DNA of 33,871 nt from a virus, in the IMG/VR virus record IMGVR_UViG_3300017987_000234, positions 1-33,871 of that record; one strand, 5' to 3'. Under the pieces are notes generated by a model, which saw only the letters and a list, made by a program, of their open reading frames with translations, had not been told where the DNA came from and did not search any database. Within the stretch, counting starts at the first letter, position 1. Each line of letters begins with the position of its first letter. The translations under genes and the position numbers were made by a program. Below, in pieces: positions 5,270 to 24,516 of the stretch.

Positions 5270-5607
5270 CGTGCCGCTACCTCCTCTGCCCGCTGCTTGC
5301 GGATGCGCTCCGCCGCCGCCCGCACTTCGCCCATCACGATCTCGCGATCGGGCTCGGCCATCCCGAACAGCTCGGCCTCGTTCAGCTGCCACGCCTGCTC
5401 CGCCGTCCCGCCCTGCGCCAGCCTCCAGGCCATCAGCGCGCGGGCATACACGAGCCGGTTGCGGACCGTCCGCGGATCGCTGCTCTCAGGCCGCGTCTCA
5501 ACGAACCTGATCTGGCTTACGCTGAGCGCGCTGGCCGCTGCCAGCACGTCCAGGCTGAGCCCCAGGCCCTTCCGCACTTCGCTTACGTCTCGCGTCTCGT
5601 TCTGCAT
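5266..5607 (-). CDS. Cro-like HTH protein, first gene of the early operon
   Basis: A 113-aa protein starting at ATG 5607. Residues 8-45 (VRKGLGLSLDVLAAASALSV then IRFVETR) resemble an XRE-type helix-turn-helix, followed by a helical C-terminal half ending in a charged helix. Its place, first gene of the leftward early operon facing the XRE repressor across an operator region, is that of Cro or an early regulator. The ATG lies only 9 nt past the -10 box of a consensus promoter, so the mRNA would have almost no leader and no room for a Shine-Dalgarno. An internal GTG at codon 11 is an alternative start. Confidence 0.65.
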   Translation of the reverse strand: MQNETRDVSEVRKGLGLSLDVLAAASALSVSQIRFVETRPESSDPRTVRNRLVYARALMAWRLAQGGTAEQAWQLNEAELFGMAEPDREIVMGEVRAAAERIRKQRAEEVAAR

Positions 5608-5608
5608 T

Positions 5609-5702
5609 CCGCTGACATTATAGCAGCATTCCGCAGATTGTCAACCCCTCGGCGCAGATTGCTGACGGTGCTCAGCGATCCGCTGCGCACTCCGCCGATT
5701 TG
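5609..5702. promoter_or_regulatory. Operator region: phased direct repeats
   Basis: Copies of a CCGCNGATTG-like element occur at 5609 (CCGCTGACATT), 5631 (CCGCAGATTGT), 5652 (GCGCAGATTGC), 5692 (CCGCCGATTTG) and, weakly, 5672. The GAT/GAC cores are at 5614, 5636, 5657, 5677 and 5697, spaced 22, 21, 20 and 20 bp, two helix turns each. An imperfect palindrome GCTGA-N6-TCAGC lies at 5661-5676. The first two copies sit on the early promoter. Probable binding sites for the XRE repressor and/or the Cro-like protein. Confidence 0.6.
5617..5644 (-). promoter_or_regulatory. Consensus sigma70-type early promoter
   Basis: On the minus strand TTGACA (5644-5639) and TATAAT (5622-5617) are both perfect consensus hexamers with a 16-bp spacer. 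Expected start is about 5609-5611, leaving only a few nt before the ATG at 5607. Two operator-like repeats overlap the -35/spacer and the start region. Confidence 0.85.
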
Positions 5703-8092: not shown

Positions 8093-8580
8093 AGGCGGGC
8101 AACATCATTGGCGGAACTTGCGTAGGCTGCATCGGCCTGCTGGTGCTGGGATTCTGTGCAAGCGTGATGATCGGCCAGAGTGACAGCGGCAAGGCCAGCC
8201 GCAGTACTGCATCGCGGTCAACGGCCAGCAGCCGTACGCAGCGCACGGCTGAAACTCAGCCGCAGCTTGAGGTCTCGGCCCTGGTTCTGTACTCGGCTTA
8301 CGATGCGAACGTGGCGGACTTCGAGTCGCGCTACGGCGACGACCGCACGATCAAGGTGACCGGCACGATCAAGAGCGTGGACGAGTTCGCCGGTGACTTC
8401 ATCGTCCGACTGCGCGGCGAGCAGGGCGAGTATGCCTGGGGCAGCGTCGACTGCTACTTCGATCCGGCACACCAGAGCGCGCTCCGGAAGCTGAGCAAGG
8501 GCAGCTGGGTCGCTATCATCGGCAAATGCGATGCCGGTGTGGGCGGTCCCTTACTTCGGTATTGCAGGCTGGCGCCATGA
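8089..8580 (+). CDS. OB-fold (tRNA_anti-like) membrane protein
   Basis: GTG 8089 overlaps the lipoprotein stop as GTGA. Residues 7-29 form a transmembrane segment, followed by a Ser/Thr/Arg-rich linker (33-58). The C-terminal domain (LYSAYDANVADFESRYG, IKVTGTIKSV, VDCYFDP, WVAIIGKC) matches the tRNA_anti-like OB-fold family found in small membrane or secreted proteins. In this family the fold is thought not to act on tRNA. Probably anchored with the OB domain outside the cytoplasm, together with the lipoprotein encoded before it. Role unknown. Confidence 0.7.
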   Translation: MKAGNIIGGTCVGCIGLLVLGFCASVMIGQSDSGKASRSTASRSTASSRTQRTAETQPQLEVSALVLYSAYDANVADFESRYGDDRTIKVTGTIKSVDEFAGDFIVRLRGEQGEYAWGSVDCYFDPAHQSALRKLSKGSWVAIIGKCDAGVGGPLLRYCRLAP

Positions 8581-8660
8581 CTACCGGGCAGCGACTCCTG
8601 GCGCTGGCCATCCTGACCGCCTGCTGGTGGATTGGCCTGCATCTGGCGGCGGCGCCGTGA
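8577..8660 (+). CDS. Membrane micropeptide (27 aa)
   Basis: ATG 8577 overlaps the previous stop as ATGA, and its own stop overlaps the GTG of the recombinase as GTGA. The 27-residue product is a single hydrophobic helix with two adjacent Trp and a short Thr/Arg start. It may be a true membrane micropeptide or simply a coupling ORF that carries ribosomes to the recombinase start. Confidence 0.45.
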   Translation: MTTGQRLLALAILTACWWIGLHLAAAP

Positions 8661-10426
8661 GACGTCCGCGGGCGATCCTGTATGCAGCGAAGTCGGTAGC
8701 TGACCGCGACGAGCCGCTGGAGTCTCAGCACGAGCGGCTGAGACGCGCAGCCAGTGCGGAGCCCCGGCGCTACCAGATCGTCGCGGAGTACGGCGAGTCC
8801 AATGAGAGCGGTACGACGATGCGCGGGCCGGTGCTGCGCCGGGCCCTGGCGATGATCGAGCGCGGCGAGGCCGAGATCATCATGGCCACGCGCATGGACC
8901 GGCTCGTGCGCAACTGGGACCTCCAGGAGGAGCTGCGGCGCCGCCTGCTGGCCGCGGGCGGCCGCTGGGACCTCACTGATGAGCCTGCGCCGCCAATGGA
9001 CTACGAGCGCCGCCAGGAGCGTCTGAGCGAAGCGCAGCGGGCGCTGTACCGCGAGCTGGAGTCGGCGATGGCCAGCGATCGCATGACGGACGCACTCAGA
9101 GGCAAGTGGCAGTCAGGCCGCTGGATCGGTCCGGCGCCATTCGGGTACCGGCACCAGGGCCGCAGCGGGCTGGTACCGCGAGCCGATGAGCAGGAGGTCT
9201 ACGATCAGTTGGTAGACCTGCTGCTGGCGACCGGCAATGTGGCGCAGACGCTGGACCTGGCACGCGAACACGGGCTTAAGCCCAAGCGGCGGCGCGCGTG
9301 CTGGACACGGAGCAGCCTGGAGGGAATGATGGGTAGCCGCGCCTATCTGGGCCAGGTCTGCCGGACGCTCCGCTGCTACAGCCGCGAGCAGGCTGAAGCC
9401 CTGGTAGCTGAAGATCCCGGCAGCCGTGAGGTCTGCCGCTCGAGCCGTCGCCGTGGCGAGAAGGAGCCGTACAAGCTCTGGGGCTGCAAGGTCTGGCGGG
9501 CGGGGCAGCACGAGCCGCTGATCGAGCCGGAGCGCTGGCAGGCTGTGCAGCGGGTGCTCGCGGCGTGCAGTGGCAGCCGCGGGCGCGGGCGGCGGCGGGG
9601 CGCGCTGGTCTATCCGCTGGCCGGCCACGTGGTCTGCGGCTGCACCACGCTCGACGGCCAGCCCACGCGGTACATCAGCGACTACGTGTCCAGGCGACGG
9701 GCCGATGGCAGCGTGAACAGGATCAGGTACTACGAGCGGGCCGATATCAACAAGCGGCATCACGGCGGGCAGCTGAAGCACACAGGGCCGGAGCCGGGTG
9801 CTCAGCGGGTCAACGCACAGCGGGTCGAGACGTGGGTTGTGGAGCAGCTGAGCCTGATCGCGGGCAGCGACGAGGGCTGGCAGGCGGTAGAAGCATGGAT
9901 CGGCCAGCTGATCATTGACGGCGCGGCAGCCATGGCGGAGATCAGGCGGGATGCGGAGCAGCGGCGGCGGCGGTGCCTGGAGCAGCTGGAGGCTACCCGG
10001 CAGCGGTACCAGCTGATCCTGCTGGGCAGCGATGCGCCGCAGGGCCAGCGGCTGCTGGAGGAGCGGCTGGACAGCCTCGACGCGGAGCTGACCGGCTGCG
10101 AGGAGTGCCTGGCTGATCTGGAGGAGCTGGCGGCGTGGTACCGAGCACTGCCTGCCCACGTCGACGCGGCGCGCGACAAGTACCGGCGGGCGGTCGAGTA
10201 CGGCCACGGCGGGCAGAGCTACCAGCTGCGGGATGTGCTGGAGGATATCCTGCCGGCGGGCGGCGGCGTGACGGTGTATGACCGCGAGGACTGGGAGCTG
10301 CATCTGACGCTCGGATCAGAGCTGGAGCGGCTGGCAACAAGGTTCGGGGAGATCGAGGTTAACTGGGCTTTGCCCAGCATCAGCGCGAACGTAGTTTACC
10401 ACGCTTTGACCCTGCTTGCAGGATAA
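8657..10426 (+). CDS. Large serine recombinase, phage integrase
   Basis: GTG 8657 overlaps the micropeptide stop; the open frame starts earlier but that part lies in other genes. The 589-aa product has the resolvase domain (Ser13 in YAAKS; SGTTMRG near 51; MDRLVRN, Asp81-Arg82-Arg85), the Recombinase domain (GKWQSGRWIGPAPFGYR from about 155), a reduced zinc-ribbon-like segment (VVCGC) and a C-terminal coiled coil (about 440-520). It would integrate and excise the phage. Oddities: the Arg normally two residues before the catalytic Ser (Y-x-R-x-S) is Ala here, and the Cys pairs of the zinc ribbon are incomplete. Still, length and order fit the family well. Confidence 0.85.
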   Translation: MRRPRAILYAAKSVADRDEPLESQHERLRRAASAEPRRYQIVAEYGESNESGTTMRGPVLRRALAMIERGEAEIIMATRMDRLVRNWDLQEELRRRLLAAGGRWDLTDEPAPPMDYERRQERLSEAQRALYRELESAMASDRMTDALRGKWQSGRWIGPAPFGYRHQGRSGLVPRADEQEVYDQLVDLLLATGNVAQTLDLAREHGLKPKRRRACWTRSSLEGMMGSRAYLGQVCRTLRCYSREQAEALVAEDPGSREVCRSSRRRGEKEPYKLWGCKVWRAGQHEPLIEPERWQAVQRVLAACSGSRGRGRRRGALVYPLAGHVVCGCTTLDGQPTRYISDYVSRRRADGSVNRIRYYERADINKRHHGGQLKHTGPEPGAQRVNAQRVETWVVEQLSLIAGSDEGWQAVEAWIGQLIIDGAAAMAEIRRDAEQRRRRCLEQLEATRQRYQLILLGSDAPQGQRLLEERLDSLDAELTGCEECLADLEELAAWYRALPAHVDAARDKYRRAVEYGHGGQSYQLRDVLEDILPAGGGVTVYDREDWELHLTLGSELERLATRFGEIEVNWALPSISANVVYHALTLLAG

Positions 10427-10432
10427 GGAGAG

Positions 10433-10508
10433 TGGAGCGCCAGGGTCGGGTTCGAACCGCCGCCTGCCTACTGGTGTGTAGGCTGTGCTGCCACTACACT
10501 ACTGGCGC
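10433..10508 (-). tRNA. tRNA-like sequence, abnormal anticodon loop
   Basis: On the minus strand 10508-10433 gives an acceptor stem GCGCCAG/CTGGCGC (7 bp perfect), a D arm GTGT/GCAC, an anticodon stem GCCTA/TAGGC, a T loop TTCGAAC with a 4-of-5 stem, discriminator T and encoded CCA. The anticodon loop is 8 nt (CACACCAG) with no T33, and one extra base lies between T stem and acceptor, so the isotype cannot be assigned; the T discriminator is compatible with Gly or Cys. It may be a degenerate tRNA, a phage tRNA with unusual decoding, or a tRNA copy carried at the attachment site beside the integrase. Confidence 0.55.
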
Positions 10509-11238
10509 ATGATCTCGGCTTGCCCTTGTACATGCCGGCACCGGCTTCCTCGATAGCGCTGTATGGTAACTCCGGTACGGTCAGCTTGGCGCGGCAGGCA
10601 GGATCGAGGAAGTAGATATAGCGGAGCTGGAATCCTGGCAATACTCGACCGATGCCCTGCTCCTGCACATAACTGCTCCAATACCGTCCGCCTGGCCTAG
10701 GATAATTGGGATTGTCCGGTGTTTTGGCCGCGACGATCTGTCGTGCTTTCGTTCGGCGCTCAGTGCCGGTACGCAAGCCGATATCAGTAAACACCTCGCC
10801 GTCAAGCTCCATGATGGTGGCGTTGGCACGGATACCAGTCAGCACGAATCCCGCCGCACGATAGATCGTGCCATCGCCGCACTGCGTCCCATCCGCGAAA
10901 CTGACAACCCACTTCAGATGCGGGTAGTGCCGCCTGAGCAGGCGCATGGCAACCGCAATCGCTCTCGATTCACTGTTGCGTGGCAGCCAGTCAGCAAGCG
11001 CCAAGCGGTTCAGCTCCAGGAACTCATTCCACTTGGTATCAGCCACCAGTCCGATGATCTTCCGCTTATCCAGCGACGGCCCAAATTGCAGCGCGCCGCC
11101 GCATTTCCCATCGAGGAAAACGCCTAGGTGAAGCTGGCTGTTCTGTACTACTTTCCCGCTGTAGTGAAGCTGCCTTATGATCCGATTCGCATCCTGGGCG
11201 CTGATCGGCTTGACGCGGATATCCTTAGCCCTGCCCAA
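10468..11238 (-). CDS. mom: Mom-family DNA adenine modification enzyme
   Basis: I choose TTG 11236-11238: GGAGG lies 6 nt upstream and the start overlaps the ParB-domain stop by 14 nt. The 256-aa product matches the Mu Mom family (GNAT fold): HYSGKVVQNSQLHLGVF, GALQFGPSLDKRK, LELNRLA, NSESRAI and SFADGTQCGDGTIYRAAGF occur in order. Mom converts adenine in DNA to N6-(methylcarbamoyl)adenine, protecting phage DNA from many restriction enzymes. The last 13-14 codons and the stop lie inside the tRNA-like sequence, which replaces the C-terminal tail. Late expression fits Mom's known toxicity. Confidence 0.85.
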   Translation of the reverse strand: MGRAKDIRVKPISAQDANRIIRQLHYSGKVVQNSQLHLGVFLDGKCGGALQFGPSLDKRKIIGLVADTKWNEFLELNRLALADWLPRNSESRAIAVAMRLLRRHYPHLKWVVSFADGTQCGDGTIYRAAGFVLTGIRANATIMELDGEVFTDIGLRTGTERRTKARQIVAAKTPDNPNYPRPGGRYWSSYVQEQGIGRVLPGFQLRYIYFLDPACRAKLTVPELPYSAIEEAGAGMYKGKPRSCASSVVAAQPTHQ

Positions 11239-11878
11239 GGTAATCCTCCACGATGCGAGCCAGCGCGTTCCCGTTGCTATTCTCGTTACCGGTGCCGTTG
11301 AATGCACCCGCTGCCTTCGCCTTTGCCAGCGCAGCCTTCACGCACTCGGCCTGGCTATCAGCCAGCGTGAAGGTCATCTGCTGGAACGGCTCGCGGTCGC
11401 CACTGCGCAGCTCAGGCATTTCAGCTTCGCCGACCTCGAACATACCGGCCTGCTCCAGCAGCGCATCGAATCGCAGCTCCGGCACCAGCCCCGGCTGCAC
11501 TGCCTGCACTTCACCAATCAGCGCCTGCACGTCCAGCGTGAACTCGCCCGCAATCGCTGGGTTGTTTAGCGCCAGATTCAGCGCCTTCTCGTCAGTCTCG
11601 TCCAGGTCCACGATCACGACGTCCGCTACATCTACCCCCTCGGCCTGTAGCGCCTTGATCCGCTGGTGGCCGCCTACCACCTGCCCACTGCGCTTGTTCC
11701 AGACGATAGGCTCCACCAGCCCGAACCGCCGGATACTCGCGCGCAGCCCCTTCAGGGCAGCGTCGCTGATCGTGCGTGGATTGTGTGGCGCTGGCTTCAG
11801 CTCCGTCAGCGACATCCGTGTAATCCGGACAGCCTCATCGACGGGATCATCGATGAGGGATTCCGCACTGCTGGACAC
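11225..11878 (-). CDS. ParB N-terminal-domain (ParB/Srx-like) protein
   Basis: I choose GTG 11878 with GAGGTGA 7 nt upstream; upstream in-frame codons read through the leader hairpin. The 217-aa product has the ParB/sulfiredoxin-like domain near residues 20-85: LKPAPHNPRTISD (box I), LRASIRRFGLVEPIVW and GGHQRIKALQAEG (box II). The C-terminal half contains a long helical region and a GNENSNGN stretch. Phage proteins of this type often sit next to DNA-modification genes; here it is translationally coupled to Mom. It could bind DNA, act as a nuclease or regulate its own operon through the palindromes upstream. Confidence 0.8.
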   Translation of the reverse strand: MSSSAESLIDDPVDEAVRITRMSLTELKPAPHNPRTISDAALKGLRASIRRFGLVEPIVWNKRSGQVVGGHQRIKALQAEGVDVADVVIVDLDETDEKALNLALNNPAIAGEFTLDVQALIGEVQAVQPGLVPELRFDALLEQAGMFEVGEAEMPELRSGDREPFQQMTFTLADSQAECVKAALAKAKAAGAFNGTGNENSNGNALARIVEDYLGQG

Positions 11879-11950
11879 GATACGGTCACCTCGTCTACGA
11901 TGTAACCGCTCGTTCCCTTGGTGCTTGACGGTGCTTCCGGAACGAGCCAC

Positions 11951-11971
11951 ACCCCCGCTCTGCGGGGGTTT
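11951..11971 (+). terminator. GC hairpin with short T-run, plus-facing
   Basis: ACCCCCGC and GCGGGGGT (11951-11969) form an 8-bp stem with a TCT loop; on the plus strand TT follows. It could stop plus-strand readthrough from the integrase region before it enters the late genes. On the minus strand it lies in the ParB/mom leader and no T-run follows. Confidence 0.4.
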
Positions 11972-11980
11972 CACTCACAG

Positions 11981-12030
11981 GACCAGTATAGCCAGCCCGA
12001 GCAGTACTGCTCAGCAGCCCAGTACTGGTC
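11981..12030. promoter_or_regulatory. Three-palindrome operator array upstream of ParB/mom
   Basis: GAGCAGTACTGCTC (11999-12012) and CCAGTACTGG (12019-12028) are perfect palindromes; CCAGTATAGC (11983-11992) is a third, imperfect copy. Their centres are 18 bp apart. Outer ends form GACCAGTA...TACTGGTC. A minus-strand TATACT (11990-11985) overlaps the first copy as a candidate -10. Probably binding sites for a dimeric regulator of ParB/mom. Confidence 0.6.
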
Positions 12031-12042
12031 AATGCTAATGCA

Positions 12043-12888
12043 CTACGTCACGCTCACTACCGCGCCCGGATACCGGCTCACCGGCCGCAGCCTGCGGTAC
12101 ACGCCGTCGCCGTCAGCGTCCTCGCTGATGTTCCGCGGGTCGGCGCTGGTGTTGCCCTCGATGGTAGTCAGCTCGCCGTCCTCGCCCACCTGCTCAACCA
12201 GGCCCACGTGGTACCAGCCGCTGCCGCCGCCGGCGAACAGGTACACATCGCCCGGCCGCGCCTCAGCCGTGGGCCGCAGCCGCTTGTTCTGCTCGGCCCA
12301 GCGGTGGATCATCGAGCAGCTCAGCTCCGGCACGCCGGGCGCCACCGGGACATCCGGCATGAACAACCCCAGCAGCAGATAGCCGTAGTCAATGAACGCA
12401 TGCTGGGCTGCCGCGCACCAGGGCCACTGCGAATGATCAGGCGCACCAGCATGATCCAGCAGCGCCTCCACCATCGGCCCGCTATTAGGCCCGCCGACCT
12501 CTCTGATCCGCAGCACATCGCAGGCGTACCGCGCCACGTGCACGATCGACTGCCGCAGCTGGTAGCCCAGGCCGTCAGGCTTGTCCGGTACCACGCGCGG
12601 CTTCGGCGGTACCTCGCCCGCCAGAGTCGCCAGTGTCACCGGGCCCGCGATGCCGTCTACCACCAGCCCGCAGTCCTCCTGGTAGTTGCGCGTGATCTCA
12701 TCGAGCGCCAGGCTGAAGGTGCTGAACTCCGGCTCGTCGCCTTCCGGAATCAGCGCCGACTCATACCCGGCGGCTGCCAGACAGCGGCGGTACAGCCGCA
12801 CATGCCAGCCGGGCCGCACACCAACGCGCAGCATCGGCCGCAGCTCGGGGTCGATTCCCCTGAGTGTCGCAATCGGATCAAACGGCAT
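12043..12888 (-). CDS. Endolysin: PG-binding-like N-terminus with CHAP-type amidase/peptidase
   Basis: I choose ATG 12888, with AAGGAGGAG 3-5 nt upstream; an in-frame GTG five codons earlier overlaps the previous stop. The 281-aa protein has an N-terminal peptidoglycan-binding-like part (ITRNYQEDCGLVVDGIAGPVTLATLAG, about 65-91) and a C-terminal CHAP/NlpC-type domain with WPWCAAAQHAF (Cys158), YHVGLVE (His227) and IEGNTS (Glu244/Asn246). It would cut peptide bonds in peptidoglycan at the end of infection. No signal peptide is visible, so export would need the holin. It closes the late operon. Confidence 0.8.
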   Translation of the reverse strand: MPFDPIATLRGIDPELRPMLRVGVRPGWHVRLYRRCLAAAGYESALIPEGDEPEFSTFSLALDEITRNYQEDCGLVVDGIAGPVTLATLAGEVPPKPRVVPDKPDGLGYQLRQSIVHVARYACDVLRIREVGGPNSGPMVEALLDHAGAPDHSQWPWCAAAQHAFIDYGYLLLGLFMPDVPVAPGVPELSCSMIHRWAEQNKRLRPTAEARPGDVYLFAGGGSGWYHVGLVEQVGEDGELTTIEGNTSADPRNISEDADGDGVYRRLRPVSRYPGAVVSVT

Positions 12889-12899
12889 GGTCTCCTCCT

Positions 12900-14492
12900 T
12901 CACTTCACCTTGACCTTCAGGCTCGTAGGCCCGAAGTGTGCGAAGTCGATCCGAGTCCTCAGGGCTCGGATCAGCTTGTTCGCCGCCCGCACTTTGGCGC
13001 CATACGGCTTGAACGGTGGGCCGTCCGGCGCCTTGTCCACGTGCTGCCAGTGCACCTGCCAGTTGTAGCTATCCAGGCCAACCATGTGGATCGCTTTGAC
13101 CTGCGGGTAGCTCGCGGCCAGCTGAATCGCGCGGAACGCGACCCCCGCGCTGCTGCTGAGCAGCCACGGCTCGAATACCGGATCATCGACCGGCGGCAGG
13201 TGCTTGAAGGTGTGGTAGTCGTAGGGATAGCGCCCGGCGTTCGCCGCCAGCAGGTCGCTCAGCAGGTGCATGCGCCCGCGCAGGTGCTCCCAGATCAGCG
13301 GGTACCGCCAGCAGTTGACGTTCATCAGCATCAGCAGGTCCGGATCGACCAGATTGCAGGCGCTGTTGACGGCGATCACGGTGTAGCCCTTCAGGTTGAT
13401 GTCCCTGGCGCGGTGTAGCGACGGGCCGGTACCGCAGATCAGCACGTGGCTGCCGGGATCGAACGCCTGCCGGAAGCTGTCCAGGTCGCCCAGGCACCGC
13501 CCGCGGACTTTGGGCCGCGGGGCTACGGCCTCGCCGGTCCAGTCGCCCAGCATGTACAGCTCATGCTTCAGGAACAGCTCCGGGCCTAGGCCGTAAACCT
13601 GCCCCTGCATTTCGTTGAGACGGCCGCGCAGCCGGTCTTGGTAGTCGCGGCTCACGTACCGCTTGCCGTCCGCCAGCTGGCCGAGCCTGAAGCAGCCGCC
13701 CGGATGCTCGTGCAGTAGCGGTATCCCGGCGTGGTAGACCGGCACGCCGGCCAGCAGCGACTCATACGCGGCAGTGCTGTTGATCGTCGCGCAGGCGTCC
13801 GCCCACTCGATATCGTCAGCGAGCGTGCGGTTCTGCGAGATCAGTACATCCTCGTCGGGCCAGGCAAGGTACGGGTCGGGGTACCACGTCGTGTCGACGG
13901 TGATCTTGTGCTCGGGGACGGCCCGCAGGGACTCCGGGTGCGGGCGGTACCTGATCTCGGCGTCCGGCAACAGATCGCGGACTTCGCTCATCAGCAGGCA
14001 GCTGTTAAAGCCCAGCCCACCATACTGCTGGGCCTGATCCCCGTGGACCTGCCCGATCACGAGTACCCGCTTGATCGGGCTGTCCGCCGGGATCGCGCTG
14101 GCTGCCGGCAGCCTGTCCGGGCTGGTGGCGTGCCTGAGCCAGGTGTCCGATTCGTACATCGCCCAGTCGATCCGCGCGGTCCGGTAGTGCGCAGCCACGC
14201 CGAGCCCGATGTGCCAGTACCTGAGGCCGGCCTGCCGGAACCGGCGCCGGCGCGCATCGCTGTGGGCCATGTACTCATGCGCCATGAACGTATCGATTCC
14301 CGCGTCCTGGCACTCGGCCAGCAGCTGATCGTCATTCTTGCCGCGCTCGTCAAGCTCGTGGACCTCGGCGAAGAATGGGAACAGCTCGGGCCAGCGGCCG
14401 CGGCTGATCTGCTTACCCAGGAACCGCGATACGGCCAGCCGCCGGTCGATCAGCGGGCTGTCGCGATCGGTGCATGTACTGATCAGCTGCAC
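12900..14492 (-). CDS. KpsC/KpsS-like glycosyltransferase fused to Maf/DUF115-like domain
   Basis: GTG 14492 has AGGAGG 4 nt upstream and overlaps the previous gene by 10 nt. Residues about 60-310 match the Capsule_synth family (KpsC/KpsS, retaining Kdo transferases): DTWLRHATSP, VLVIGQVHGDQAQQYGG, RYRPHP (R183, H185, P186) and ADACATINSTAAYESLLAGVPV (S239, E244). Residues about 345-520 form a second domain (ICGTGPSLHRARDI, SSSAGVAFRAI, ANKLIRALR) like Maf/DUF115 glycosyltransferases that add nonulosonic acids to flagellin. The N-terminal part is paralogous to the gene at 32242. Probable target: a virion protein or host surface polymer (inferred). Confidence 0.75.
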   Translation of the reverse strand: MQLISTCTDRDSPLIDRRLAVSRFLGKQISRGRWPELFPFFAEVHELDERGKNDDQLLAECQDAGIDTFMAHEYMAHSDARRRRFRQAGLRYWHIGLGVAAHYRTARIDWAMYESDTWLRHATSPDRLPAASAIPADSPIKRVLVIGQVHGDQAQQYGGLGFNSCLLMSEVRDLLPDAEIRYRPHPESLRAVPEHKITVDTTWYPDPYLAWPDEDVLISQNRTLADDIEWADACATINSTAAYESLLAGVPVYHAGIPLLHEHPGGCFRLGQLADGKRYVSRDYQDRLRGRLNEMQGQVYGLGPELFLKHELYMLGDWTGEAVAPRPKVRGRCLGDLDSFRQAFDPGSHVLICGTGPSLHRARDINLKGYTVIAVNSACNLVDPDLLMLMNVNCWRYPLIWEHLRGRMHLLSDLLAANAGRYPYDYHTFKHLPPVDDPVFEPWLLSSSAGVAFRAIQLAASYPQVKAIHMVGLDSYNWQVHWQHVDKAPDGPPFKPYGAKVRAANKLIRALRTRIDFAHFGPTSLKVKVK

Positions 14493-22135: not shown

Positions 22136-24516
22136 TCGATGTCACTCGCGTCGTAGTCGAGCACCCGCAGCTGGTAGGTGCGCTTGCCGGGCCGGATCGT
22201 CGGCTTGAACATCCGGCAGACGCCGGTGTAGTCCGCGGCGCCGCTGCTGTCCTCGTCAATCGCAATCGTGTCGCCCAGCTCAGGCCACGCGCTCAGCGCT
22301 CCGGAGCCGCGATACTGCCGCATGCTGTACAGCTTCAGCGCGTTGCGCAGGTAGGCGCGTCCGATGGTCAGTGCCGCCGCGTCGCTGGCCGGGCCGATGT
22401 TCTTGATGGACTTCACCCGCGGGCAGCCGGCGCTGCCGCTGGAGTTGATCCCCCCGCGCAGTTTCGTATGGGCGCCAACGTTGTAGATGTACTCCGGCTC
22501 TGTCTTGAGCGCGGCGTTATCCGTCGTCTGCACCAGCGCATACTTCGTCACGTTGCCCTGCACGATCAGCTGGTGCACGCAGGCCCAGTACTGGTCGCCG
22601 CCGTCGACCGGTCCGGCCATGTACTCGAACACAATCCGGATCGCGTTGACCTGGCGAACGATGAAGCTGCTCATCTCCAGCTCGACCGCCGTCCCATCGC
22701 GCGACGGCACGCCCATGATCGCGCCGCCCAGCTCGTACCAGACGCCGCTTGTCGGTGCATGCGTGGCGGTATCGTAGTCAGCACAGCCGTCGACGCGGAC
22801 CACGAACTCACCCTCGTCGTTGCGGGTGCTGCGGTCGCTGGTAATCGCGCGGTACGCATTGACCCACAGATCGAGGTAGTCCAGGCGAATCGTCGGCGCC
22901 CCGTCGCCGAACCAGAAGTGGCAGAAGTCGAACTCCCCGCCTGGGTCGTGCTCGTAGTCGGCCATCAGCTTGGTCTCGTTCTTGCCATCCGTGAGCATGT
23001 CCACGCCGAAGTCCGTATCTGCGGGATCACCGGTTGCGTACTCCACATACTCATCCGTATGCCAGTCCTCACCGCCAGCGGTGACCTTGAGCCAGCGGTC
23101 CGGTTGCGCCCCTGCCGCCGCCGGCTCGCAGTGGTAGCTATGCTCCTGCTTGATCAGGTTCGGGTCCTGGTCGTACGTGTAGGCGACCCGAACAGCTGAG
23201 TACACATCGCGCAGGCTCATGTCCGCCTGCACCTGCTGGATACCGCCGGTGATGGTCAGATCAGGTGCACCGGCATTGCCGATCTGCGCCAGCCGGAACT
23301 TGCCCGTCGAGTGCTTGAACCAGAAGCCGATCTCATCCTCAAGCTTGAGCAGCCGGATCAGATGCTGGATTGCGTTCCACGGCGTCTGCGGCCACTTCTC
23401 CGGGTCGTAGTCGATCCGCGTGATGCCGATCTCCAGCGCGTCGAAGTCGCAGTCGCCCGCCGCGAAGCCCGCGCCGCCGTAGGCAGCCGGGCCGGTGACA
23501 AGCACCTGGACCACATCCTCCAGATAGACCACGTTGCTACCCGCGTCCAGGGACTTATCCTCGTCGTACACGCTGTATGTGCCGGTGAAGGTATCCGCGC
23601 CGGCATCAAGGCCCACCAGCACGAAGCAGCCGTATCCCGTGAGAACCTTGTAGTCCTTGTCGTACCGCATCTTGACGGCACCGCCGCCATCATCGCGGTA
23701 GAGCACCGGTGTCTGCGGGCCGATCTTCTTAGCGACCTTCGCGTAGGCGGTGTCGTTGGCGGCGTGACCGGCCGCAGCGGTACCCAGCTCCGCGCGGGCA
23801 ATGGCCTGCGTGCGGTACCGCCCGCCGCCGCCCGTCGCGTCGTAGCCCTCGCAGTAGAACCACTCGGCGTTGATCTTCAGCCAGAACTGCGGCGGGAAGC
23901 CCTGGTCGGTCGCCGTGAACTCGATGTAGAACGGGCAGGCCGCGCCGATCAGAATCTGCGCGTTGATCGTATCTGACGGGCTCTTGGCGTCGCTGATGTA
24001 GCACTTCGCACCCTCGGCGTCGGCGGGATCAGGCCACAGCGTATCGCTGGCGAAGGTGCCGTAGCTGCTGCTGGCCTTAAGCGGCATGGCGCCGGCGGCG
24101 CCCACCTGATAGGTGTCCGTCGCCATGGTCCAGCTCTCGTTGCCGCTGGCATCGGGGCAGACCGCATCGAGTAGCGCGGCTTCGTTGCCCTCCAGCTTCA
24201 CGGAGAGGTACGTGACGGTGTTCCGCTGATCGTTGACGACTCGCACGTGCTTCGGCTTGTCGGCCACGCGGCCGCGGAGCACGGTGCTCCCGTCGACAGC
24301 TACCAGCGCCGTGCTGTTGACCTGGCACGGGTTATTCGCATCGTCCGTCTCCAGCCCGTATTTGCTGCTGACGTCGTGCGCGATCGTCAGAGTACAGCTG
24401 CTGACCACTCCCAGCTCGTAGACCGGCTCCAGAGTGGCCACCGGCACCGCTGCCGAGCAGCCGCCGCCACCGTTGTAGTTCTCCTCAGGGTTGGTGAATG
24501 TGATGGTGATGCTCAT
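22132..24516 (-). CDS. Tail tip/baseplate hub protein
   Basis: A 794-aa protein downstream of the tape measure and distal tail genes. N-terminal beta domain (about 1-120) resembles hub or Tal-type entry domains; the middle (about 330-480) has ITRIDYDPEKWPQTPWNAIQHLIRLL and DMSLRDVYSAVRVAYTYD; the C-terminus (LYSMRQYRGSGALSAWPELGD, then RTYQLRVLDYD) looks like the closing strand set of gp27/J-type hub proteins. It would close the tail tube and position the fibre. Many acidic residues and Cys are present. Confidence 0.65.
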   Translation of the reverse strand: MSITITFTNPEENYNGGGGCSAAVPVATLEPVYELGVVSSCTLTIAHDVSSKYGLETDDANNPCQVNSTALVAVDGSTVLRGRVADKPKHVRVVNDQRNTVTYLSVKLEGNEAALLDAVCPDASGNESWTMATDTYQVGAAGAMPLKASSSYGTFASDTLWPDPADAEGAKCYISDAKSPSDTINAQILIGAACPFYIEFTATDQGFPPQFWLKINAEWFYCEGYDATGGGGRYRTQAIARAELGTAAAGHAANDTAYAKVAKKIGPQTPVLYRDDGGGAVKMRYDKDYKVLTGYGCFVLVGLDAGADTFTGTYSVYDEDKSLDAGSNVVYLEDVVQVLVTGPAAYGGAGFAAGDCDFDALEIGITRIDYDPEKWPQTPWNAIQHLIRLLKLEDEIGFWFKHSTGKFRLAQIGNAGAPDLTITGGIQQVQADMSLRDVYSAVRVAYTYDQDPNLIKQEHSYHCEPAAAGAQPDRWLKVTAGGEDWHTDEYVEYATGDPADTDFGVDMLTDGKNETKLMADYEHDPGGEFDFCHFWFGDGAPTIRLDYLDLWVNAYRAITSDRSTRNDEGEFVVRVDGCADYDTATHAPTSGVWYELGGAIMGVPSRDGTAVELEMSSFIVRQVNAIRIVFEYMAGPVDGGDQYWACVHQLIVQGNVTKYALVQTTDNAALKTEPEYIYNVGAHTKLRGGINSSGSAGCPRVKSIKNIGPASDAAALTIGRAYLRNALKLYSMRQYRGSGALSAWPELGDTIAIDEDSSGAADYTGVCRMFKPTIRPGKRTYQLRVLDYDASDIE

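What the first reader, a model, noticed from the sequence alone, without database searches (positions are those of the whole stretch)
11981..12030. Three AGTACT-centred palindromes 18 bp apart before ParB/mom
Two perfect palindromes (14 and 10 bp) and one imperfect copy have centres spaced 18 bp apart, and the imperfect one overlaps a -10-like TATACT. This regular spacing is unlikely by chance and suggests tight control of a toxic DNA-modifying operon, perhaps by the ParB-domain protein itself.
Basis: partly seen in the sequence, partly recalled or inferred. Interest (0 to 1): 0.5.

Follow-up and report, generated by a model that had tools for sequence, protein, structure and literature searches.

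The report
Palindromes before a tRNA-linked DNA-modification operon
The palindromes are real and sit in front of a phage DNA-modification operon, and following that operon showed that its Mom gene nearly always carries a small glycine-tRNA-like gene at its end, which suggests that charged tRNA supplies the chemical group put onto DNA.

Summary
In detail: GAGCAGTACTGCTC (11999-12012) and CCAGTACTGG (12019-12028) are perfect palindromes with centres 18 bp apart, but the third 'copy' is only a half-site (GACCAGTA, 11981-11988). A similar array arose in 4 of 300 shuffles of the window. It lies in the 164-bp gap upstream of parB-mom; operator function is plausible but unproven. No CAGTACTG occurs in 81 distinct upstream regions of related parB-mom pairs. 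No DNA-binding domain was matched in ParB, and the XRE gene's own promoter region carries other repeats.

The larger result lies downstream. The operon ends in a 76-nt tRNA-Gly-like gene (10433-10508, minus) overlapping mom. A covariance model finds such an element in 128 of 130 viral Mom loci, 120 overlapping mom, and in 0 of 24 ParB-only loci; its stems covary strongly. Published bacterial glycine-identity bases are nearly invariant, while the D arm is lost in 21 of 91 and an extra T-stem A is kept in 86 of 91. I infer that Mom takes its glycyl group from a dedicated Gly-tRNA rather than glycyl-CoA. Sixteen Dehalococcoides islands were reported with such elements in 2011; my searches found no such mechanism in print. 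Ten phages with more distant Moms lack it.

The parts
   Evidence: reverse complement of 12023-12030; not palindromic itself
11999..12012 (.). perfect 14-bp palindrome GAGCAGTACTGCTC, centre of the array
12017..12030 (.). near-palindrome GCCCAGTACTGGTC with perfect 10-bp core 12019-12028
   Evidence: the same 14 bases recur once at 22583 inside an ORF
11985..11990 (-). TATACT, -10-like hexamer overlapping the half-site
   Evidence: sequence; no promoter called on the minus strand by the consensus scan
11908..11976 (-). two hairpins of the presumed parB leader (arms 11908-11916/11939-11947 and 11944-11958/11962-11976)
   Evidence: minus-strand RNA 11880-12045 folds at z -4.14
11884..11908 (-). 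predicted hairpin that pairs the AGGTGA ribosome-binding site of parB
   Evidence: single-sequence fold only
11225..11878 (-). parB-like gene, proposed start GTG 11878 (217 aa); ParB_N domain
   Evidence: start inferred from where homologues begin to align and an AGGTGA seven bases upstream; the ORF itself is open from 11974
10468..11307 (-). mom (PF25680; fold of phage Mu Mom 8BV8)
10433..10508 (-). tRNA-Gly-like gene overlapping the 3' end of mom; GCG...CGC acceptor, U73, CCA encoded, CC in an 8-nt anticodon loop
   Evidence: model R1 66.0 bits, E 2.8e-13; the window was not in the model
12043..12903 (-). endolysin-like gene (CHAP + PG_binding_1) upstream of the array
8531..10426 (+). large serine recombinase, convergent with mom

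Best explanation
The 50-bp array is most likely the operator/promoter region (inferred, about 0.5) of a three-part module transcribed on the minus strand: parB-like gene, mom, tRNA-Gly-like RNA. A dimeric regulator, phage or host, would bind the half-site and two palindromes; the leader hairpins may add control of translation. What the module does: the tRNA-like RNA is charged with glycine by the host glycyl-tRNA synthetase, is kept away from the ribosome by its odd T stem, anticodon loop or missing D arm, and hands its glycyl group to Mom, which puts it on the N6 amino group of adenine in phage DNA; the ParB/sulfiredoxin-fold partner assists in an unknown step. The known Mu product, alpha-N-(purin-6-yl)glycinamide deoxynucleoside, adds the mass of one glycyl residue to deoxyadenosine and could arise by an intramolecular rearrangement of N6-glycyl-adenine (my chemical inference). 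Shown: array, gene order, RNA fold, linkage, identity elements. Inferred: co-transcription, expression and charging of the RNA, donor role, operator function.
For: Array. Linkage of the RNA to Mom: a hit at E < 0.01 in 76 of 76 sources (window included) and 52 of 54, so 128 of 130 Mom loci, and in 0 of 24 ParB-only loci. 21 of the 128 loci were the model's own rows; the window was not. By position 120 of 128 overlap the mom ORF (6 on the opposite strand), 5 lie within 100 nt downstream, 3 at 151, 228 and 435 nt. Fold: on a sequence-only MAFFT alignment of 21, 99.5% of cells paired and covariation 0.655 against 0.164 shuffled and at most 0.116 slid; on 91 elements fitted to the model, 98.8% and 0.690 against 0.159 and at most 0.122. 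Identity: of 85 distinct sequences U73 in 85, G71C72 in 85, G1C2G3 in 84, C70 in 81 and a CC within positions 26-42 in 85; CC in the aligned anticodon loop in 90 of 91. These are the bacterial glycine determinants of Table 1 of PMC9976931 (passages). Odd for translation: D arm mostly absent in 21 of 91, an A at the extra T-stem position in 86 of 91, non-7-nt anticodon loops in 25 of 91. Selected as RNA: in 70 same-strand overlaps that I chose out of 114, all three mom frames occur, 51/14/5. Cellular genomes: 52 of 63 Mom loci have a hit, 47 within about 150 bp of the end of the Mom match. Psychrobacter phage Y8A, a cultured phage, has two copies in tandem right after mom. Mom has the GNAT fold, yet the stretch where GNATs hold the CoA signature (recalled) reads R-N-S-E-S-R-A, with E113 and R115 at 90% or more in 36 proteins. 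Product name: reference title in PMC4461284.
Against: No expression, charging or enzymology is available. 10 of 10 phages fetched with more distant Moms, Mu included, have no hit at E < 1 near mom (filters off; best there is 9.5 bits, E 3.3, about 100 nt behind mom in pAEv1818), so a dedicated tRNA is not needed by every Mom; those would have to use host Gly-tRNA. L145 lacks the element. 11 of 63 cellular Mom loci have no hit within their 2-kb flanks and 5 hits lie farther off. The models also score ordinary host tRNA-Gly genes, up to 57 bits, so a hit alone is not diagnostic; position and odd features carry the argument. Many elements look less odd: 66 of 91 have a 7-nt anticodon loop, 56 have GG in the D loop, 32 have TTC in the T loop. 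Published text names an acylated CoA such as glycyl-CoA as donor (PMC7824862, passage). For the array: no conservation, no promoter call, no known binder.
Confidence: 0.55

Rival explanations
1. The 50-bp element is the attP site of the large serine recombinase at 8531-10426: an imperfect inverted repeat of about 50 bp with a central TA dinucleotide, placed between endolysin and integrase as in many temperate phages.
For: Size and bipartite symmetry (7 inner and 8 outer pairs) resemble serine-integrase attP sites (recalled); the place between lysin and integrase fits.
Against: 1.5 kb from the recombinase with parB and mom between; the central dinucleotide TA is itself palindromic, which would lose direction; 17 of 25 dyad pairs is common. 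No integrated copy could be examined: a search for close relatives of the recombinase in genome contigs found none.
Confidence: 0.2
2. The array is a weak or bidirectional transcription terminator, or structured RNA, behind the endolysin gene.
For: Minus-strand RNA 11880-12045 folds far better than shuffles (z -4.14), the array forming one long hairpin.
Against: No T run follows on the minus strand, and the terminator scan finds none there.
Confidence: 0.2
3. The array is a chance cluster of palindromes without function.
For: 4 of 300 whole-window shuffles give as much; no conservation in relatives.
Against: It falls in a gap between genes and holds 4 of the 6 half-sites of a 47-kb record.
Confidence: 0.15
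4. The tRNA-like element is an integration target or attP remnant, or a tRNA for translating phage glycine codons, not a partner of Mom.
For: Many elements integrate at tRNA genes (recalled); phages carry tRNAs; host tRNA-Gly genes match the same models, and 66 of 91 elements keep a 7-nt anticodon loop.
Against: 128 of 130 Mom loci against 0 of 24 ParB-only loci; overlap with mom in three frames and on either strand; all four stems kept by covariation, where an att remnant need keep only one end; D arm lost in 21 of 91; tandem copies in Y8A.
Confidence: 0.15

Closest known systems
Phage Mu mom operon (com-mom, activator C, Dam/OxyR, Com)
   Same: Mom of the same family and fold (8BV8 is the best structural match, Foldseek E 1.1e-18, Z 22.4). 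In Mu the gene is toxic, late and under layered control (PMC4461284, passages).
   Different: Here a ParB-like gene takes the place of com; no GATC in 11879-12042 by reading (Mu has three Dam sites upstream of mom: PMC7549136, passage); a tRNA-Gly-like gene is attached, and Mu has none near mom.
ssrA genomic islands of Dehalococcoides (PMC3146451)
   Same: Serine recombinase, ParB, Mom and a 76-bp tRNA-Gly-like locus with a DCC anticodon embedded in a module gene; in the 16 modules of that paper (passages).
   Different: The passages read propose roles in regulation, modification, transfer or maintenance in general and no link of the tRNA to Mom chemistry; here the element is followed through 130 viral and 63 cellular Mom loci.
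Non-proteinogenic tRNA-Gly of Staphylococcus aureus and the FemXAB transferases (PMC4052509)
   Same: Glycyl-tRNA variants with features consistent with weak EF-Tu binding supply glycine to an aminoacyl transferase (passages).
   Different: There the acceptor is a peptidoglycan precursor; here the proposed acceptor is adenine in DNA, and the tRNA can lose its D arm.
Phage repressor operator arrays (lambda, 434; recalled)
   Same: Several short palindromes in a row, possibly over a promoter.
   Different: 18-bp centre spacing with 4-bp gaps, no cognate repressor identified, one site only half present.

Membership tests
Mom DNA-modification family (PF25680) | Pfam model above its cut-off | tested here: met
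   176.5 bits against a cut-off of 27.1
Mom DNA-modification family (PF25680) | fold of Mu Mom, a GNAT variant | tested here: met
   8bv8_A Foldseek E 1.1e-18; VIA-align Z 22.4, 198 aligned, rmsd 4.3
Mom DNA-modification family (PF25680) | glycinamide-modified adenine in the DNA | not testable with these tools
   needs mass spectrometry of phage DNA
Mu-type mom control | com gene overlapping mom, Dam sites upstream | tested here: not met
   gene upstream is parB-like; no GATC in 11879-12042 (by reading)
bacterial tRNA-Gly as GlyRS substrate | U73, G1-C72, C2-G71, G3-C70, C35, C36 (PMC9976931 Table 1, passage) | tested here: met
   window 10433-10508; near-invariant in 85 distinct elements
bacterial tRNA-Gly as GlyRS substrate | glycylation in vivo | not testable with these tools
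   needs acid-gel Northern or a charging assay
canonical translational tRNA | 7-nt anticodon loop and a regular 5-bp T stem | tested here: not met
   window: 8-nt loop and an extra A in the T stem; extra A in 86 of 91 elements, but a 7-nt loop in 66 of 91; no Rfam match at E <= 1 in the window
ParB partition protein | central helix-turn-helix that binds parS (recalled) | tested here: inconclusive
   only the N domain matched; much of the C-terminal half poorly modelled
operator array of a dimeric regulator | binding of a regulator, effect on transcription | not testable with these tools
   sequence only; no conservation
serine-integrase attP | junctions of an integrated copy at the site | tested here: inconclusive
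   no close relative of the recombinase found in genome contigs

The most novel reading that the evidence does not exclude
Mom enzymes of the ParB-linked branch are aminoacyl-tRNA-dependent DNA-modifying enzymes: they use a dedicated, phage-encoded Gly-tRNA, sometimes stripped of its D arm but keeping the bases that glycyl-tRNA synthetase reads, as glycyl donor for adenine hypermodification. I know of no other DNA modification fed by a charged tRNA (recalled).
Probability: 0.6. Interest if true: 0.93.

Novelty: new variant of a known kind. Interest (0 to 1): 0.75.

Why it matters
A published overview writes the source of the group that Mom puts on adenine as an acylated CoA such as glycyl-CoA (PMC7824862, passage). 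A conserved tRNA-Gly-like gene attached to mom points to charged tRNA instead and makes the question directly testable with a cultured phage (Psychrobacter Y8A) or with plasmids. It would join translation chemistry to DNA modification, and it would mark a class of minimal tRNAs kept for charging rather than for decoding. The palindrome array alone matters little unless its binder is found.

Tried and rejected
Palindrome conservation: the two sister records are identical where compared; upstream regions of 105 related loci, 81 distinct, hold no CAGTACTG and one single AGTACT. Whole-50-bp symmetry as evidence: dropped, since 17 of 25 pairs is common. Relatives through the endolysin, the recombinase and the gene at 12900-14492 gave only the sister records in viral contigs, and the recombinase none in genome contigs. 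XRE and ParB as binders. Rfam: nothing at E <= 1 in the window. Distant Moms (Mu and nine other named phages): no hit at E < 1 near mom; the one significant hit (L243, 491-561) is an ordinary tRNA-Trp. The 11 cellular Mom loci without a hit: a whole-genome search of nine of those genomes gave matches in 8 of 9; 15 of the 20 matched places that I inspected are ARAGORN tRNA-Gly genes. I could not place them relative to mom, so these loci are left as misses. A descriptor search of my own found 58 matches in 55 of 153 loci with 0 in reversed sequence; replaced by the covariance model. No aminoacyl-tRNA transferase appeared among the 50 rows shown of each Mom fold search; absence there excludes nothing. 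Literature: ten searches, some of them capped lists (12 of 175 papers shown, 20 of 56). Of what was listed only PMC3146451 seemed to join phage-type Mom with tRNA-Gly; PMC7549136 holds both words but speaks of Mu mom only in passing (passages). The library lacks bioRxiv and most subscription papers, and I could not see the paper behind 8BV8, so prior publication of a tRNA role cannot be excluded.

Full report
What the window is. It is a 33,871-base IMG/VR virus record. Two other records match it without a difference: G002 contains the whole window at 100% and adds 13.4 kb, and G001 is 100% identical over the stretches compared. They say that the phage recurs, and nothing about conservation. 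The endolysin-like gene, parB and mom are on the minus strand; a serine recombinase and an XRE-like gene (HTH_31, below Pfam's cut-off) are on the plus strand. Ten window proteins were searched against families; the rest of the genes were not.

The array. The best description is a nested dyad centred at 12005/12006: a 14-bp palindrome in the middle and 8-bp arms GACCAGTA and TACTGGTC at the ends. Shuffles of the whole window give a comparable tandem in 14 of 300 and with a third copy in 4 of 300. The site lies between genes: judging by where homologues begin to align and by an AGGTGA seven bases upstream, parB starts at GTG 11878, leaving 164 bp to the end of the endolysin gene. The minus-strand RNA of this gap folds into several hairpins (z -4.14), one of which pairs the ribosome-binding site. 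I take the array as an operator at about 0.5, with attP, terminator and chance as rivals. No relative examined keeps it, so the case rests on sequence alone.

The operon. In 129 of 129 viral loci with a Mom match (of 153 loci examined, found by ParB or by Mom; the self matches left out), a ParB-like gene lies directly upstream on the same strand; none of the loci fetched by Mom lacked it. In cellular genomes 44 of 63 Mom loci have it within 1.2 kb upstream.

The tRNA. Reading the region behind mom for an attP showed a tRNA-like sequence. ARAGORN calls it tRNA-??? at 10433-10508 with an 8-nt anticodon loop holding ACC. ARAGORN on the 129 Mom loci gave tRNA genes in 14, each typed Gly or, with a 6-nt loop, Glu|Gly; it gave none in the 24 ParB-only loci. 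From 21 elements of equal length an alignment with strong covariation was made and a covariance model R1. R1 finds the element at E < 0.01 in 128 of 130 Mom loci, counting the window, and in 0 of 24 ParB-only loci. The two misses are L022, where mom runs off the contig, and L145. E-values of such models are rough; the weakest accepted hit is L120 (24.3 bits, E 0.0059). Among the 128 there are 85 distinct sequences: U73 and G71C72 in 85, G1C2G3 in 84, C70 in 81, seven acceptor pairs (G-U allowed) in 84, a CC within positions 26-42 in 85; CCA is encoded in 97 of 128 loci. These are the positive glycine determinants of bacteria in Table 1 of PMC9976931 (passages).

Why not an ordinary tRNA. In 91 elements aligned to the model the D arm is mostly missing in 21, an extra A sits in the T stem in 86, and the anticodon loop is not 7 nt in 25. 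Against this, 66 have a 7-nt loop, 56 have GG in the D loop and 32 have TTC in the T loop, so many keep ordinary parts. The elements overlap mom in three reading frames (51, 14 and 5 of 70 that I chose from 114 same-strand overlaps) and in six loci lie on the opposite strand, so the conservation is of RNA and not of protein. What is kept is what a glycyl-tRNA synthetase reads; what is odd concerns parts that the ribosome and EF-Tu use. The latter is inference, by analogy with the S. aureus tRNAs for FemX (PMC4052509, passages).

Breadth. In GTDB genomes 48 of 63 Mom loci have an R1 hit, and the wider model R2 adds four; 47 of the 63 lie within about 150 bp of the end of the Mom match (for L227, L229 and L233 measured to the longer match), 5 lie farther off and 11 have none. 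R1 and R2 also match ordinary tRNA-Gly of hosts, so position matters. Psychrobacter phage Y8A carries two copies between mom and the terminase genes. Phage Mu and nine other phages with more distant Moms carry none at E < 1 near mom (R2 agrees).

Mechanism. Mom has the GNAT fold, but the segment that in GNATs holds the CoA signature (recalled) is R-N-S-E-S-R-A in the window with E113 and R115 nearly invariant in 36 proteins. Charged tRNA as donor fits the constant glycine identity and the constant linkage. The Mu product is named in a 1983 reference title as alpha-N-(9-beta-D-2'-deoxyribofuranosylpurin-6-yl)glycinamide (seen in the reference list of PMC4461284); relative to deoxyadenosine it adds the mass of a glycyl residue, and an N6-glycyl intermediate could rearrange to it. 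That last step is chemical reasoning of mine without data. A published overview instead names an acylated CoA such as glycyl-CoA (PMC7824862, passage).

Prior work. PMC3146451 reported in 2011 a tRNA-Gly-like element, usually labelled pseudo-tRNA, in 16 Dehalococcoides island modules with ParB and Mom (passages). In the passages I read it was not tied to Mom chemistry. My ten searches listed no paper that does so, with the limits told under Tried and rejected.

Noticed in passing
L168 6662-6726 and 6734-6799 (Psychrobacter phage Y8A): Two tandem tRNA-Gly-like elements between mom and the terminase genes, absent from the features listed for that stretch of the record.
   Followed up: partly
L101 2522-2632: Seven GGGAATTCCC palindromes, partly at a 13-bp period, upstream of another parB-mom pair.
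   Followed up: partly
L133 1025-1098: A second tRNA-Gly-like copy in front of parB, besides the one at the mom end.
   Followed up: no
window 5604-5661: Repeats GCATTCCGC[TA]GA and CGCAGATTG, 22 and 21 bp apart, between divergent genes, perhaps the XRE repressor's own operators.
   Followed up: no
window 8531-10426: The serine recombinase reads Y-A-A-K-S where resolvases have Y-x-R-x-S (recalled), so a catalytic arginine may be missing (by reading).
   Followed up: no
ParB-like proteins, alignment A7: A strongly conserved C-terminal segment, PFQQMTFTL...NENSNGNAL in the consensus, got no Pfam match in the window protein.
   Followed up: no
L243 491-564 (phage Melnitz-3): An ordinary tRNA-Trp gene about 0.9 kb upstream of a distant Mom homologue.
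   Followed up: no
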